This document shows positions 2 to 27,919 of a stretch of DNA of 64,000 bases, piece by piece. Every line of letters starts with the position of its first letter. Within the stretch, counting starts at the first letter, position 1. Origin of the DNA: Bacteroidia bacterium (GTDB taxonomy: Bacteria > Bacteroidota > Bacteroidia > Cytophagales > JAAEPT01); NCBI GenBank assembly GCA_030431525.1, contig JAUIJC010000028.1, positions 1-64,000 of the forward strand, in the 5' to 3' direction. The notes under the pieces were generated by a model. That model was given only the letters and a program-made list of their open reading frames with translations, searched no databases and was not told where the DNA came from. The position numbers were made by a program, and so were the translations under genes.

Positions 2-1444
2 TTCTTCTCGAAATACATCGAGGAACTCCGCAAAGGCCTGACAAAAAGCGAGGCCATCCGCACCACCATCAACGAAGTGGGCAAGGCTACCTTCCTAACC
101 TCGGTCACCACCGCCATCGGCTTTTTCACGCTCTACTTTATCGACATCAAGCCGATTCGCGAATTCGGGCTTTACTGTGGTCTGGGCGTATTATTCGCCT
201 TCATCATCACCATCCTATTACTTCCCCCACTGCTCAATTATTTGCCAAAGCCATCGCTGTTTTCCGTGTCCAAATCGGACCGTTTCTGGAACCGCATTTT
301 GCTGAAATCCTTGCAGACGGTTTTTGTCCGCCGAAAAGCGATTCTCGTAGGCTTTTTGGCCATCAGCGTATTAGCCATTGGAGGCATCAGCCAAATCCAA
401 ATCAACACCAAGCTGATTGACGACCTGCGCGACGACGACCCGATGAAGATTGATTTCGTCTTCTTCGAAGAAAACTTCTCTGGCGCCCGACCATTCGAAT
501 TGGCGCTCACCCTTCCCCACAGCAAAAGCTCCTTTTTCGAGGATTCCGTCCTACATGAATTGGGCAAACTCGACCACTTCCTCCACGAAACCTACGGGGT
601 GAAAAGCCTGATGGGGCCCGCCACCATGGCCAAAGGACTGAACCAAGCCCTCAATGGCGGAATGCCCGAATATTTCCAGATTCCGGAAAACAAACGCGAC
701 CTGAAACAAACGCAACGCTACCTCCACAAAGGGCGCAACCGCGACGAGTACAAGCTGTTCATCAACGACAGCCTGCACATCGGGCGCATCTCTGGGAAAA
801 TCCCCGACTGGGGAAGCCAGATTATTCAATGGAAAAACATTGCCCTGCAAGACTTTATCGACCAAGAGCTGGACCCCAACCAACTTCAAGTCCGCATCAC
901 GGGGAGCGCCCTCCTCATCGACGAAAACAACGAGGACTTGGCCAGCAACATGATTCTCGGTTTGGTCATCGCCTTCGGCATCATCGCCCTCATCATGGGC
1001 GGGCTGTTCCGCTCCCTCAAAATGATTTTCATTGCGCTGATGCCCAACGTCATTCCCCTGTGCATCTTGGGAGGCATCCTCGGCTTCGGCCACATCGACC
1101 TCAAACTCAGCACCTCCATCATCTTCACCGTGGCCTTCGGCATCGCCGTGGACGACACCATCCACTTTATGAGCCGTTACCGCATGGAGCGCAACTTGGG
1201 CAAAAGCCCCCTCTACGCCATCAAACGGAGCTTTATCTCCACCGGAAAGGCCCTTATCATCACCTCATTCATCCTCTCCTCCGGCTTTATGAGCCTGATG
1301 CTCTCCAGCTTTATGGGCACCTTCTACACAGGCCTTTTCATCAGCCTCACACTGTTCTTCGCCTTGATTTCCGATTTGACCTTGTTGCCTGTGCTGTTGT
1401 TGTATTTTGAGAAAAGTGAGGGAAGAGTAAGGATGAAGGGGTGA
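2..1444 (+). CDS. RND/MMPL-family exporter, C-terminal part (5' truncated)
   Basis: The reading frame is open from position 2, before any start codon, so about 480 C-terminal residues of a larger protein are visible and the N-terminus lies left of the window. It starts inside the first membrane bundle (a motif like EVGKATFLTSVTTAIGF, typical of MMPL/SSD domains). There follow a soluble porter region and a second bundle of about five helices with the FGIAVDDTIHFMSRYR segment characteristic of the family. Known members are proton-driven inner-membrane exporters of lipids, hopanoids or other hydrophobic compounds. The substrate cannot be read from this part. A GTG at 77 could be mistaken for a start, but it lies within the conserved domain. 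The next gene is an unrelated orphan 30 bp downstream. Confidence 0.9.
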   Translation, partial: FFSKYIEELRKGLTKSEAIRTTINEVGKATFLTSVTTAIGFFTLYFIDIKPIREFGLYCGLGVLFAFIITILLLPPLLNYLPKPSLFSVSKSDRFWNRILLKSLQTVFVRRKAILVGFLAISVLAIGGISQIQINTKLIDDLRDDDPMKIDFVFFEENFSGARPFELALTLPHSKSSFFEDSVLHELGKLDHFLHETYGVKSLMGPATMAKGLNQALNGGMPEYFQIPENKRDLKQTQRYLHKGRNRDEYKLFINDSLHIGRISGKIPDWGSQIIQWKNIALQDFIDQELDPNQLQVRITGSALLIDENNEDLASNMILGLVIAFGIIALIMGGLFRSLKMIFIALMPNVIPLCILGGILGFGHIDLKLSTSIIFTVAFGIAVDDTIHFMSRYRMERNLGKSPLYAIKRSFISTGKALIITSFILSSGFMSLMLSSFMGTFYTGLFISLTLFFALISDLTLLPVLLLYFEKSEGRVRMKG

Positions 1445-21903: not shown

Positions 21904-22575
21904 CTAAATCTCCCCAAACATGGTAACCCGCCCAAACTGGCAAAACTTATTCACCTTCTTCAATTCCTCAAAAGTAGGCGTTTGCACATCCCTCGGCACT
22001 TTTTGCAATCGGGCGTCCTTCTTTTCAAAAGGCAGCTCCTCCTTAGTTTGGAACACAAAGGGCCAAAGCGTGGTAGGACAACTGTAAAGGATTTTCTCTG
22101 TTGGAAGCTTCAGGTATTCATTCAGCTTGGCATTAGTCTCCTCAAAAAACTCGAAGGAATCAGCCAAACGCACCCGTGATCCCGCCCGTGATTTGCCTTT
22201 CTTTTTGAGATAGGTCAACTGGGACTTTCCACGTTTTTTGCGGACCATGTATTTCCGAATGACCTTGTGGTGCACCACCTCTCCCTCCGAAAAATAACCC
22301 AAAGCGCAATTACCCGACTGCATCAAAAACATGACATAGGGAATGGGCTTCTCGGGCACCCGATTCAGATAGGCTTCCAACGATTCTCCGTCCTCAAGCC
22401 GTGGAAAACTCAAGGGAAAACGGATTTCAGCCATCCTCTCTCCATCATCATCCTCAAAGGATAGTTGCTGTTTCTTTTCATCAAGAAAATAGCGCCACCC
22501 TTCTTTTTCCATCAATTGACGGAGCCTTGGAATCACCTCCTCGTAAGGAATGAAATCAATGTTTTCCTTTGCCAT
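21904..22575 (-). CDS. VLRF1 (Vms1-like) release-factor homologue, predicted peptidyl-tRNA hydrolase
   Basis: A 223-aa soluble protein whose residues 78-210 follow the eRF1-like domain of eukaryotic Vms1/ANKZF1. In order these are a hydrophobic strand with SGNCALG (Vms1: SGGHFAG), HHKVIRKYMVRKKRGKSQ (Vms1: HKTFHRYxVRxKxGGSQ), RAGSRVR, and the tail FEKKDARLQKVPRDVQTPTFEELKKV. Gln119 in the KSQ loop corresponds to the catalytic Gln of Vms1, which releases stalled nascent chains from the 60S subunit. Bacterial VLRF1 members have been predicted computationally; experimental work on bacterial ones is not known to me. The zinc finger and VIM of Vms1 are absent. Its role would be ribosome rescue or quality control. 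Neighbours are HslU upstream on the same strand and an orphan membrane gene downstream. Confidence 0.75.
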   Translation of the reverse strand: MAKENIDFIPYEEVIPRLRQLMEKEGWRYFLDEKKQQLSFEDDDGERMAEIRFPLSFPRLEDGESLEAYLNRVPEKPIPYVMFLMQSGNCALGYFSEGEVVHHKVIRKYMVRKKRGKSQLTYLKKKGKSRAGSRVRLADSFEFFEETNAKLNEYLKLPTEKILYSCPTTLWPFVFQTKEELPFEKKDARLQKVPRDVQTPTFEELKKVNKFCQFGRVTMFGEI

Positions 22576-22643
22576 AATGCAAGGGTAAGAAAAAGAGGTT
22601 GCCCCAATAAAAGGACAACCTCCAAACTGTGCTTTTGACGTAA

Positions 22644-22685: not shown

Positions 22686-24056
22686 TTAAAGAATATATTG
22701 ACTCAAATCACGGTCTTGTACCATATCTCCCAATCGCTCATCCACCATTTCAGCGGTGATGACAATTTTTGCGTTGGCACCAATCACGTCTGGGACATCA
22801 AACAAAATGTCGTTGAGCAACTTGCTCACCACCGTATTCAGACGGCGTGCGCCAATATTCTCAATCTCAGAATTTACGCGGAAGGCGATTTCCGCCAAGC
22901 GTTTGAGGGCAGCATCTTGGAAGCTCAGCTCTACGCTTTCTGCCTTTAACAAAGCCTCATATTGCTTGGTCAAGGCATTTTTTGGTTCGGAAAGAATCTG
23001 ATAGAAATCATCCTCAGTCAAATCCACCAATTCCACACGAATTGGGAAACGTCCCTGAAGCTCTGGAATCAAATCCGAAGGCTTGGACAAGTGGAAAGCT
23101 CCGGCAGCCACAAACAGAATGTGGTCAGTTTTGATGGTGCCGTGCTTAGTGGCCACCGATGAGCCTTCAACGATAGGCAACAAATCACGTTGCACACCCT
23201 CGCGGCTCACATCTGGACCTCCACCCTTGGCAGAGCTAACGGCAATCTTATCAATCTCATCAATGAAGATGATGCCTGTATTCTCTGCACGGCGGATGGC
23301 CTCCTCCTTGACCTCTTCCATGTCAATGAGTTTGGCAGCCTCCTCCTCGAGCAATACTTTTCTGGCCTCGGCAATGGTCAACTTGCGCTTGCGGGTCTTC
23401 TTCGGCATCATGGAGCCAAGCATATCCTGCAAGCCAATCATTGACGCCTCGTCCATACCCGGAGCAGCCACACCGATTCCTGAGGCTGGATTTTGAGTAA
23501 CAGTAATCTCAATCTTACGGTCCTCTAACTCACCGTTACGGATTTTCTCACGGAAACGCTCACGAGTGCGCTCGTTCAGCTCATGATCATTTTTTGGTTC
23601 GTCTGCAGTAGTCGAACTAAAGTTAGAACCACCACGCATCGGTGGGATCAAGGCATCAAGAATTACCTCCTCCACAGCCTCCATGGCCTTTTCCTTGACA
23701 GCCTGTTGCTTCTGGCTGCGCACCATGTTCACCGACTGCTCTACCAAGTCGCGCACCATGCTTTCCACATCGCGACCTACATAGCCAACCTCGGTAAACT
23801 TGGAAGCTTCCACCTTGGTGAACGGGGCATCGGCGATACCCGCCAAACGACGAGCAATCTCGGTCTTACCCACACCCGTGGAACCGATCATCAAAATGTT
23901 ATTCGGAACGATTTCCTGTTGAATCTCACTTGGGGCAGCCATCCTTCTCCATCGGTTCCTCAACGCAATGGCCACATTCTTCTTGGCATCCTCTTGCCCA
24001 ATGATGTATTTGTCTAATTCCGCCACAATCTGGCGGGGGGTCAAGAATTCTTTCAT
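22686..24056 (-). CDS. hslU: HslU, ATPase subunit of the HslUV protease
   Basis: A 456-aa AAA+ ATPase that unfolds substrates for the HslV peptidase in the cytoplasm. Residues 1-20 match HslU starts (LTPRQIVAELDKYIIGQ). Walker A GSTGVGKT is at about 58-65 and Walker B IIFIDEID in the middle. The I-domain is inserted between them, and the GRFPIRVEL sensor region follows. The C-terminus (LSQYIL) keeps the tail that docks into HslV. ATG 24056 gives the canonical N-terminus; a farther in-frame start at 24104 is rejected. HslV, usually adjacent in proteobacteria, is not in this window. Confidence 0.97.
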   Translation of the reverse strand: MKEFLTPRQIVAELDKYIIGQEDAKKNVAIALRNRWRRMAAPSEIQQEIVPNNILMIGSTGVGKTEIARRLAGIADAPFTKVEASKFTEVGYVGRDVESMVRDLVEQSVNMVRSQKQQAVKEKAMEAVEEVILDALIPPMRGGSNFSSTTADEPKNDHELNERTRERFREKIRNGELEDRKIEITVTQNPASGIGVAAPGMDEASMIGLQDMLGSMMPKKTRKRKLTIAEARKVLLEEEAAKLIDMEEVKEEAIRRAENTGIIFIDEIDKIAVSSAKGGGPDVSREGVQRDLLPIVEGSSVATKHGTIKTDHILFVAAGAFHLSKPSDLIPELQGRFPIRVELVDLTEDDFYQILSEPKNALTKQYEALLKAESVELSFQDAALKRLAEIAFRVNSEIENIGARRLNTVVSKLLNDILFDVPDVIGANAKIVITAEMVDERLGDMVQDRDLSQYIL

Positions 24057-24170
24057 TATAAAAGTTTTTAAAAAGTACGGGGGCACGGCGTGTTCAGTGC
24101 ACAAACGCTTTTAGAATTTAGTGGTGAGATGTATTCCCTCTAATTCTATACGGGCTACCCAGTACTTGAT

Positions 24171-25432: not shown

Positions 25433-27919
25433 TTATTTCTTTTCTCGAAGGGTCAAGTCGAGTGGCTTTTCAACCTGCTCCTCCAACAAGGCAATTTTCA
25501 AGACCTCGTCGGCATACTTGACGTAGTGGATGTTCAATTCTTGGATGTATTCCGGCTCAATCTCATCAACGTCCTTGCGGTTTTTATCACACATGATAAT
25601 GTCAGTGATGCCCGCACGCTTTGCCGCCAGAATCTTCTCCTTAATCCCGCCTACCGGCAATACTTTACCGCTAAGGGTAATCTCGCCCGTCATCGCCAAA
25701 TGATTTCTCACTTTGCGCTGCGTGTAAGTGGATGCCAAAGAAGTGAGGATTGTAATACCTGCCGAAGGACCGTCTTTTGGAACCGCACCCGCTGGGAAGT
25801 GAATGTGCAAGTCAAACTCGCGGAACATGCGGTCATCGATGCCCAACTTTTCAGCGTGCGCTCTCAATAAAGAGTGTGCCGTTTGAGCAGATTCCTTCAT
25901 CACATCACCCAACTGGCCAGAAAGGACAAACTTGCCTGTTCCTCGGCTCAAAATGGATTCGATGGAAAGGATGGAACCACCAACGGAAGTCCAAGCCAAA
26001 CCTGTTACGATACCGGCAATCTCACGGCTTTCGTATTCGTCAGAATCAAAGAGCTCTGCGCCCAAAATACGGACAACATCCTTTGGACCTACGCGGTGCG
26101 AAATATTCTCCTCCTCCATGGCAATCGACTTGGCCACGTTTCGGCAAACAGCTCCCACTTGACGTTCCAATCCACGAACACCAGACTCTCGGGTATAATC
26201 GCGAACAAGCTTTTCGATGGCCGCCTTGGTCATGGAGAACTCTTTGGCAGACAAACCGTGTTCTTCGCGCTGTTTTGGAATCAAATGCTTTTTGCAGATT
26301 TCCACCTTCTCCTCAATGGTATAGCCATTGATTTCGATGATTTCCATCCGGTCCCGCAATGCAGGCTGAATGGTATCTAAGGAGTTGGAAGTCGCAATAA
26401 AGAGGATTTTGGAGAGGTCGTATTCCACCTCCAAATAGTTATCCACAAAGGTGCTGTTCTGCTCTGGATCAAGCACCTCGAGCAAAGCGGAAGATGGATC
26501 TCCCCTGAAATCGCTTGCCACCTTGTCCACCTCATCCAAGATGAACACAGGGTTGTCCTTGCCTACCTTCTTAATGTTTTGGATCACCTTACCCGGCATG
26601 GCACCGATATAAGTTTTCCGGTGACCTCGAATCTCGGCCTCATCGCGGACACCACCCAAAGCCATTCGGATGTACTCACGGTCCAAGGCCTTGGCAACGG
26701 AACGACCGAGGGAGGTTTTACCCACTCCCGGAGGGCCGTACAAGCAAAGGATAGGCGCTTTCATGGCACCGTCCTTACTCTTGGCTGTCTTCAACTTAAG
26801 AACCGCCAAATATTCAAGAATACGCTTCTTTACCTTTTCAAGGCCATAATGTTCCTTGTCAAGGATTTTTTGAGCGCGCTTCAAATCAAAATTGTCCTTG
26901 GAAACTTTTCCCCAAGGCAAGTCGGTCAAGAGCTCGACATAGTTCAAATGAACAGGATAGTCGGCCGCCTGTGGGTTCATGCGGCTCAGCTTTGCAATCT
27001 CCTTATCAAAATGATCTCGGATGTCCTCTGACCAGTTCTTTCGAAGGGCCTTTGCCTTAATCTTCTTAAGGTCCTGCTCTGCACCTTCCTCACCCAGTTC
27101 GTCTTGAAGCACTTTCATTTGTTGCCTCAAGAAATAATCACGCTGTTGCTGATCAATATCAGACGATACCTTATGATGGATTTCGTGCTTGATCTGCAAC
27201 AATTGGATTTCCTTGTGCATCTGCTCCAACAACATGGTGGAGCGTGCAAGGCCTTCATCAATTTCCAAAAGCCCTTGCTTGATGCCCACCTCCGCATTCA
27301 AATTGGAAGAGAGGAAATGTGTCAAGAATCCTGGAGTCTCAATGTTGTCAACCGCAATCTGCGCTTCTGGTGGAAGCTCCGGATTGAGTTGCAAAATCTT
27401 ACTTGCTGCCTCCTTTAGAGAATCCACAATGGCCTTCTCTTGGTCTGGCTCCCAAGTATTGAAATCTTCTTGCTTGTATCGGACCTGCGCACGGAAGTAT
27501 GGCTCCTCAGCCAAGAATCCCTCAATGGAAAAACGGCGCTTTCCTTGGATGATGACTGTTGTATTGCCATCAGGCAACACGAGCATCTTGATGATTTTGG
27601 CCACCGTTCCTGTCTGGAACAAGTCGCTTGGAATTGGGTCTTCGATGGCAGGGTTTTCCTGCGCCACCACCCCTATGATTTTATCGCCGTTATAGGCTTC
27701 TTTGATCAGCTGAATGGACTTCTTGCGCCCTACAGTAATAGGAAGCACCACTCCAGGAAACAGGACTGTGTTTCTCACTGCCAAAATGGGCAGCTCCTCC
27801 GGCATCTCTTCATTCCCCATTTCCTGCTCCTCCTCCGGAGAAAGCAACGGAATCATTTCCCCCCCTTCCTCAGTAGCTTTATCCATCAATATTAGCGCGT
27901 CCAAGTTATTATTATGCAT
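25433..27919 (-). CDS. lon: Lon, ATP-dependent protease La
   Basis: An 828-aa cytoplasmic AAA+ protease. The N-terminal substrate-binding domain (LPILAVRNTVLFPGVVLPI) is followed by a coiled-coil region. The ATPase has Walker A GPPGVGKTS and Walker B VFILDEVDK. The C-terminal protease domain has catalytic Ser near 719 in PKDGPSAG and Lys near 760 in GGIKEK. Full length for the family. It degrades misfolded and regulatory proteins. The upstream region faces the divergent OmpA-family gene across 370 bp. I saw no CIRCE-type heat-shock operator there. Confidence 0.98.
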   Translation of the reverse strand: MHNNNLDALILMDKATEEGGEMIPLLSPEEEQEMGNEEMPEELPILAVRNTVLFPGVVLPITVGRKKSIQLIKEAYNGDKIIGVVAQENPAIEDPIPSDLFQTGTVAKIIKMLVLPDGNTTVIIQGKRRFSIEGFLAEEPYFRAQVRYKQEDFNTWEPDQEKAIVDSLKEAASKILQLNPELPPEAQIAVDNIETPGFLTHFLSSNLNAEVGIKQGLLEIDEGLARSTMLLEQMHKEIQLLQIKHEIHHKVSSDIDQQQRDYFLRQQMKVLQDELGEEGAEQDLKKIKAKALRKNWSEDIRDHFDKEIAKLSRMNPQAADYPVHLNYVELLTDLPWGKVSKDNFDLKRAQKILDKEHYGLEKVKKRILEYLAVLKLKTAKSKDGAMKAPILCLYGPPGVGKTSLGRSVAKALDREYIRMALGGVRDEAEIRGHRKTYIGAMPGKVIQNIKKVGKDNPVFILDEVDKVASDFRGDPSSALLEVLDPEQNSTFVDNYLEVEYDLSKILFIATSNSLDTIQPALRDRMEIIEINGYTIEEKVEICKKHLIPKQREEHGLSAKEFSMTKAAIEKLVRDYTRESGVRGLERQVGAVCRNVAKSIAMEEENISHRVGPKDVVRILGAELFDSDEYESREIAGIVTGLAWTSVGGSILSIESILSRGTGKFVLSGQLGDVMKESAQTAHSLLRAHAEKLGIDDRMFREFDLHIHFPAGAVPKDGPSAGITILTSLASTYTQRKVRNHLAMTGEITLSGKVLPVGGIKEKILAAKRAGITDIIMCDKNRKDVDEIEPEYIQELNIHYVKYADEVLKIALLEEQVEKPLDLTLREKK

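What the first reader, a model, noticed from the sequence alone, without database searches (positions are those of the whole stretch)
21904..22575. Bacterial Vms1-like (VLRF1) release factor
Motif order over residues 78-210 (SGNCALG; HHKVIRKYMVRKKRGKSQ; RAGSRVR; FEKKDARLQKVPRDVQTPTF) follows the catalytic eRF1-like domain of Vms1/ANKZF1, including the KSQ loop where Vms1 has GGSQ. Vms1 cleaves peptidyl-tRNA on stalled large subunits. A stand-alone 223-aa bacterial version suggests a ribosome-rescue factor in Bacteroidota of which I know no experimental study. The residue alignment is made by eye.
Basis: partly seen in the sequence, partly recalled or inferred. Interest (0 to 1): 0.65.

Follow-up and report, generated by a model that had tools for sequence, protein, structure and literature searches.

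The report
Bacterial Vms1-like ribosome release factor (bVLRF1)
This gene encodes a small bacterial cousin of Vms1/ANKZF1, the eukaryotic protein that frees unfinished chains from jammed ribosomes; the family is already named in databases but no experiment on it was found, and most bacteria that carry it also carry an RqcH-like protein, so it could be the dedicated release factor that bacterial ribosome quality control is said to lack.

Summary
In detail: a 223-aa ORF lies on the minus strand at 21904-22575 with the quoted motifs. It is a clear member of a published family, Pfam PF18826 bVLRF1 (107 bits, cut-off 27), described in 2019 (PMC6514570). A profile of 29 relatives finds yeast Vms1 as its only significant PDB match (2e-11), and the predicted fold matches Vms1 over residues 5-220 (Z 12.9). 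Vms1 residues needed for release (R288, G292, Q295) correspond to R112, G116 and Q119, invariant in 29 relatives; G..Q is kept in 100/100 sequences. Q119 lies on a long loop of low predicted order. Added here: the family is patchy in Cytophagales (121/390 genomes), not found elsewhere in the phylum sample (0/284), yet present in MAGs of several other phyla; 112/121 plus 16/17 further carriers also hold an RqcH-like NFACT gene. That association is modest (p = 0.002, not corrected for phylogeny), and six genomes of one genus keep VLRF1 without NFACT. The protein probably releases nascent chains on split 50S subunits. Activity, chemistry and the link to RqcH are untested.

The parts
21904..22575 (-). 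bVLRF1 gene, 223 aa, start ATG at 22575
   Evidence: ORF; Pfam PF18826 E 9.3e-31; relatives start at about the same place in alignment A1
21943..22338 (-). eRF1-like catalytic (bVLRF1) domain, residues 80-211
   Evidence: Pfam match; fold match to the eRF1/Vms1 domain
22339..22575 (-). N-terminal region, residues 1-79; predicted as strands and two helices; aligned with the N-terminal part of the Vms1 core
   Evidence: AlphaFold2 model; VIA alignment to Vms1 spans model residues 5-220, whereas eRF1/Pelota matches start at about residue 76
22159..22254 (-). long basic catalytic loop, residues 108-139 (13 K/R of 32); low predicted confidence
   Evidence: pLDDT below 50 at residues 117-125 and 127-136; composition
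22219..22230 (-). GKSQ motif, residues 116-119 (Vms1 G292-G293-S294-Q295); Q119 is codon 22219-22221
   Evidence: hmmsearch alignment to Vms1; G116, K117 and Q119 invariant in 29 relatives
22594..22623 (-). terminator-like hairpin (12-bp stem, 6-nt loop, then a T-run) between the upstream hslU and the VLRF1 start codon
   Evidence: leader fold z -5.1; not conserved: 6 of 76 loci have any hairpin plus T-run there

Best explanation
The gene encodes a bVLRF1, a single-domain bacterial relative of Vms1/ANKZF1. The most likely mechanism is this. [quoted passage not shown] Release would be independent of a stop codon, because there is no stop-codon-recognition domain. Shown here: family membership, the fold, conservation of the residues that yeast Vms1 needs for release, and frequent presence of an RqcH-like gene in the same genome. 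Inferred: 50S binding, catalysis, and that it often ends RqcH-type quality control. Not decided: hydrolysis of the ester bond versus cleavage of the tRNA CCA end.
For: Pfam bVLRF1 107 bits against a cut-off of 27. Profile search of the PDB: Vms1 at 2e-11 and nothing else significant. Fold: Vms1 6r84 Z 12.9 with 178 residues aligned over 5..220, ahead of eRF1, aRF1, Pelota and Balon at Z about 9-11, which match only the central domain. Yeast R288A and G292A/G293A abolish release, and Q295L, G292A and delta-S294 strongly impair it (PMC5989216); R112, G116 and Q119 are invariant in 29 relatives and G..Q is kept in 100 of 100. Carriers also hold NFACT genes: 112 of 121 in the order and 16 of 17 carriers reached through named loci, including all nine non-Cytophagales MAGs tested. 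The window's genome has an NFACT gene, MutS2, SmpB and a short ArfB-like gene.
Against: No experiment on any bVLRF1 was found in the searched library. Gly293 of Vms1 is Lys here and in most relatives, so the loop chemistry may differ. Six of eight sampled genomes of one genus keep VLRF1 without NFACT (confirmed with a second NFACT domain model), so RqcH is not obligatory. NFACT is also in 217 of 269 genomes of the order without VLRF1. The N-terminal part of the window genome's NFACT protein is not matched by Pfam or by RqcH, so its tailing activity is uncertain.
Confidence: 0.72

Rival explanations
1. It acts as a tRNA endonuclease: as reported for Vms1/ANKZF1, it cuts the CCA end from the P-site tRNA, and the chain leaves with a few nucleotides attached. 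The ribosomal target is the same as in the best explanation; the chemistry is different.
For: Recent papers describe Vms1/ANKZF1 as a tRNA endonuclease that removes CCA (PMC11317155; PMC12868832). The same Gln is needed for release in yeast.
Against: Burroughs & Aravind argue for peptidyl hydrolysis from the GxuQ motif (PMC6514570). Sequence cannot decide.
Confidence: 0.4
2. It is a stand-alone rescue factor that does not work with RqcH: it releases chains from split 50S or vacant-A-site ribosomes on its own, in parallel with tmRNA and ArfB.
For: PMC6514570 states that prokaryotic VLRF1 proteins occur independently of other RQC components. Six genomes of one genus keep VLRF1 without NFACT. No conserved gene neighbour. 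NFACT is common in the order without VLRF1 (217 of 269).
Against: 112 of 121 carriers in the order, and all nine non-Cytophagales carriers tested, do have NFACT, against rqcH in 24% of bacterial genomes surveyed (PMC11633108).
Confidence: 0.4
3. It is a ribosome-binding factor without catalysis, for example a hibernation or splitting factor like Balon or Dom34, which share the eRF1-like central domain.
For: Balon and Pelota/Dom34 appear among the fold matches at Z about 9-10.
Against: The G..Q motif is kept in 100 of 100 sequences, and the residues needed for Vms1 release are invariant. Most families of the presumed inactive baeRF-1 clade have lost the Gln (PMC6514570).
Confidence: 0.08

Closest known systems
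bVLRF1 family (Pfam PF18826; Burroughs & Aravind 2019)
   Same: Profile score four times the cut-off; same stand-alone architecture with a short N-terminal extension; GxuQ loop (GKSQ)
   Different: The window copy lacks the acidic C-terminal tail, often with tryptophan at or near its end, seen in many relatives, and sits on a long branch next to a Bdellovibrionota MAG sequence (placement uncertain)
Yeast Vms1 / human ANKZF1 (eVLRF1)
   Same: Fold over the whole core (Z 12.9); R288, G292, S294 and Q295 correspond to R112, G116, S118 and Q119
   Different: No zinc finger, ankyrin repeats, coiled coil or Cdc48-binding VIM motif; G293 is Lys; 223 aa only
acVLRF1 (NCBIfam NF041024)
   Same: Same VLRF1 clade; weak match over residues 24-119 (E 0.07)
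   Different: 12.8 bits against a cut-off of 125; that family carries a GGxSQ motif (PMC6514570)
Peptidyl-tRNA hydrolase (Pth) in Bacillus subtilis RQC
   Same: Proposed role: release of the tagged chain at the end of bacterial RQC (PMC11317155)
   Different: Described in the literature as an essential general enzyme of most bacteria; bVLRF1 is an eRF1-like protein and patchily distributed

Membership tests
bVLRF1 (PF18826) | Score above the Pfam gathering cut-off | tested here: met
   107.2 bits against 27, residues 80-211, profile 1-136 of 145
bVLRF1 (PF18826) | GxuQ loop: conserved Gly and Gln with a tiny residue before Gln | tested here: met
   GKSQ at 116-119; G and Q in 100 of 100 relatives
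bVLRF1 (PF18826) | N-terminal extension shared with eukaryotic Vms1, no Pelota domain | tested here: met
   223 aa; the rows that cover model residues 5-75 are the Vms1 alignments
bVLRF1 (PF18826) | Peptidyl-tRNA hydrolase or release activity | not testable with these tools
   No assay possible; no published assay found
Eukaryotic Vms1/ANKZF1 (eVLRF1) | Homologous catalytic core with the residues needed for release | tested here: met
   E 2.1e-11; Z 12.9; R112/G116/Q119
Eukaryotic Vms1/ANKZF1 (eVLRF1) | Zinc finger, ankyrin repeats and VIM motif | tested here: not met
   Only the bVLRF1 domain is found in a 223-aa protein; so it may work like Vms1 but is not a Vms1/ANKZF1 by architecture
Classical eRF1 / aRF1 | GGQ motif and stop-codon-recognition domain | tested here: not met
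   GKSQ rather than GGQ; no eRF1 family matched in Pfam
Bacterial RQC (RqcH pathway) | RqcH-like NFACT gene in the same genome | tested here: met
   G000:C29:38216-38869; protein matches RqcH 7aqc E 1.8e-26 over residues 208-512
Bacterial RQC (RqcH pathway) | RqcH partner with intact N-terminal domain | tested here: inconclusive
   Pfam NFACT_N matches only profile positions 203-441; the first 170 residues are too divergent to score
Bacterial RQC (RqcH pathway) | Strict dependence: VLRF1 never without NFACT | tested here: not met
   Nine of 121 carriers lack NFACT, seven of them at least 90% complete

The most novel reading that the evidence does not exclude
bVLRF1 is the dedicated termination factor of RqcH-type ribosome quality control in Cytophagales and a few other phyla: it releases tailed chains from 50S subunits and takes the place that Pth fills in Bacillus. 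This would make a Vms1-RqcH/Rqc2 pairing older than, or independent of, the eukaryotic one.
Probability: 0.35. Interest if true: 0.72.

Novelty: new member of a known kind. Interest (0 to 1): 0.42.

Why it matters
[quoted passage not shown] The paper that defines bVLRF1 says prokaryotic members occur independently of other RQC components. The census here shows that most carriers do have an RqcH-like NFACT gene, which turns an annotated but apparently unstudied family into a direct, testable candidate. Pontibacter and Rufibacter are named carriers with many cultured species, and genomes of the same order with NFACT but without VLRF1, or with VLRF1 but without NFACT, offer natural comparisons.

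Tried and rejected
Single-sequence scan of genome contigs found nothing; the alignment-based scan did. No relatives in plasmids, phages or viral contigs. Operon with hslU: not informative, because none of the window's neighbours has a relative near VLRF1 in 80 other loci and a terminator-like hairpin lies between them. A conserved leader hairpin: rejected, only 6 of 76 loci. Association with ArfB, SmpB or MutS2: SmpB and MutS2 are in 48 of 48 genomes with and without VLRF1, and short ArfB-like genes occur in both groups, so they do not discriminate. NFACT as an obligatory partner: rejected by nine carriers without it. A premature stop in the window copy was considered because its C-terminus is short; the other two frames downstream show no continuation resembling the relatives' tail.

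Full report
Observation. The window holds one ORF at 21904-22575 on the minus strand, 223 aa, ATG start. The loop is G116-K117-S118-Q119.

Identity. hmmscan gives a single Pfam family, PF18826 bVLRF1 'Bacteroidetes VLRF1 release factor', 107 bits against a cut-off of 27. The single sequence reaches Vms1 in the PDB only at E 0.18; a profile of 29 relatives reaches it at about 2e-11, and no other PDB entry is significant. AlphaFold2 on that alignment gives mean pLDDT 86 and pTM 0.80, with most of residues 117-136 below 50. Foldseek ranks four Vms1 structures first. VIA-align puts Vms1 at Z 11.6-12.9 with 168-178 residues aligned over model residues 5-220, whereas eRF1, aRF1, Pelota and Balon (Z about 9-11) align only to about residues 75-215. 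So the N-terminal 75 residues also resemble Vms1, as the family's authors proposed from sequence.

Catalytic residues. In yeast, R288A and G292A/G293A abolish release, and Q295L, G292A and delta-S294 strongly impair it; H279A, H283A, R284A and T286A behave like wild type in growth and Y285A is partly sensitive (PMC5989216). By spacing and by the HMMER alignment R288, G292, S294 and Q295 are R112, G116, S118 and Q119 here, and H279 and Y285 are H103 and Y109. H103, Y109, R112, G116, K117 and Q119 are invariant in 29 relatives; among 100 distinct sequences the motif is GKSQ 81, GKAQ 10, GVSQ 3, GTSQ 3, GKFQ 2, GMSQ 1. This fits the GxuQ description of the family apart from the two GKFQ copies. 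The second Gly of yeast is replaced, mostly by Lys.

Distribution. Of 296 genomes spread over the phylum, 5 carry the gene, and all lie in the window's order (12 of the 296 are from it); of 390 in the order, 121 do. The order is Cytophagales, judged from contigs whose lengths and gene positions equal those of named records such as Microscilla, Mongoliibacter, Pararhodonellum and Bernardetia. A scan of named genomes returned 262 relatives, of which 80 were kept; besides Cytophagales these include MAGs labelled Calditrichota, Kapaibacterium, Deltaproteobacteria (Myxococcota in the taxonomy used by the tree) and Oligoflexia. In the tree the window copy falls in a strongly supported mixed set of 20 with the Calditrichota, Myxococcota and Bdellovibrionota rows and with rows of families f63 and f52 of the order; branches are long and its exact sister is uncertain. 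Binning errors cannot be excluded for single non-Cytophagales MAG rows.

Company in the genome. The window's genome encodes an NFACT protein whose residues 208-512 match Bacillus RqcH at 1.8e-26, but its first 170 residues are not matched by Pfam NFACT_N. It also has SmpB, MutS2, two full-length RF1/RF2-like genes, a 134-aa ArfB-like open frame and a 214-aa RF-1-domain open frame. In the order NFACT is found in 112 of 121 carriers and 217 of 269 non-carriers (Fisher p 0.0024). This p-value ignores phylogeny, and small-genome families that lack both genes contribute. Nine carriers lack NFACT by two domain models; six belong to one genus, and seven of the nine are at least 90% complete. Sixteen of 17 carriers reached through named loci have NFACT-R, including all nine outside Cytophagales; the one without is a 3.0-Mb MAG that appears to be the same assembly as one of the nine. 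For comparison, a survey found rqcH in 24% of 15,259 bacterial genomes and in 404 of 1,956 FCB genomes, but in most Myxococcota and Bdellovibrionota, so part of the co-occurrence reflects phyla where RqcH is common.

Neighbourhood. Upstream on the same strand is an HslU-like AAA+ ATPase gene (22686-24104), then an ORF of 353 aa without a Pfam match and a lon-like gene (25433-27919, by sequence). A terminator-like hairpin lies between hslU and VLRF1. No neighbour has a relative near VLRF1 in 80 other loci. So there is no guilt-by-association evidence beyond genome-wide co-occurrence.

Mechanism. The best-supported model is nascent-chain release on split 50S subunits through Gln119. Family, fold and residues are shown here; binding, catalysis and substrate are inferred from Vms1. 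Whether the reaction is ester hydrolysis or CCA cleavage is stated differently in the literature on Vms1 itself. The link to RqcH is a plausible hypothesis (about one in three), supported by co-occurrence but weakened by carriers without NFACT and by the divergent NFACT N-terminus.

Novelty. The family was described in 2019 from sequence (PMC6514570) and is curated in Pfam. The term occurs in only two papers of the library searched, one of them on soybean resistance genes, and no experimental study of a bacterial member was found; most subscription papers are not covered. The window protein is a new member of a known kind. What is added is the residue-level test, the fold, the wider phylum range and the NFACT census.

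Noticed in passing
L002-L033 and L044-L123, C-termini of the VLRF1 proteins: Many bVLRF1 proteins end in an acidic tail with a terminal or near-terminal tryptophan: 45 of 99 complete sequences end in W (W is 0.9% of residues overall) and others end in WD or WE. The window copy lacks it. It might be a docking motif.
   Followed up: partly
window 22594-22623 (minus): Strong terminator-like hairpin with a T-run ends about 18 nt before the VLRF1 start codon, leaving little room for a promoter; it may be the hslU terminator or a leader attenuator. Leader fold z -5.1.
   Followed up: partly
G000:C73:96702-96935 (outside the window): A 214-aa open frame with an RF-1 domain (93 bits), too short for RF1/RF2 and longer than ArfB; possibly PrfH/RFH, another specialised release factor, in the same genome.
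   Followed up: no
L124:1133-2749 (G000:C29): The N-terminal 170 residues of the genome's RqcH-like NFACT protein are not matched by Pfam NFACT_N; many Cytophagales NFACT matches likewise cover only the second half of the profile.
   Followed up: partly
order-wide census, genus label g203: Six of eight sampled genomes of one genus have VLRF1 but no NFACT, a natural case of VLRF1 without RqcH.
   Followed up: partly
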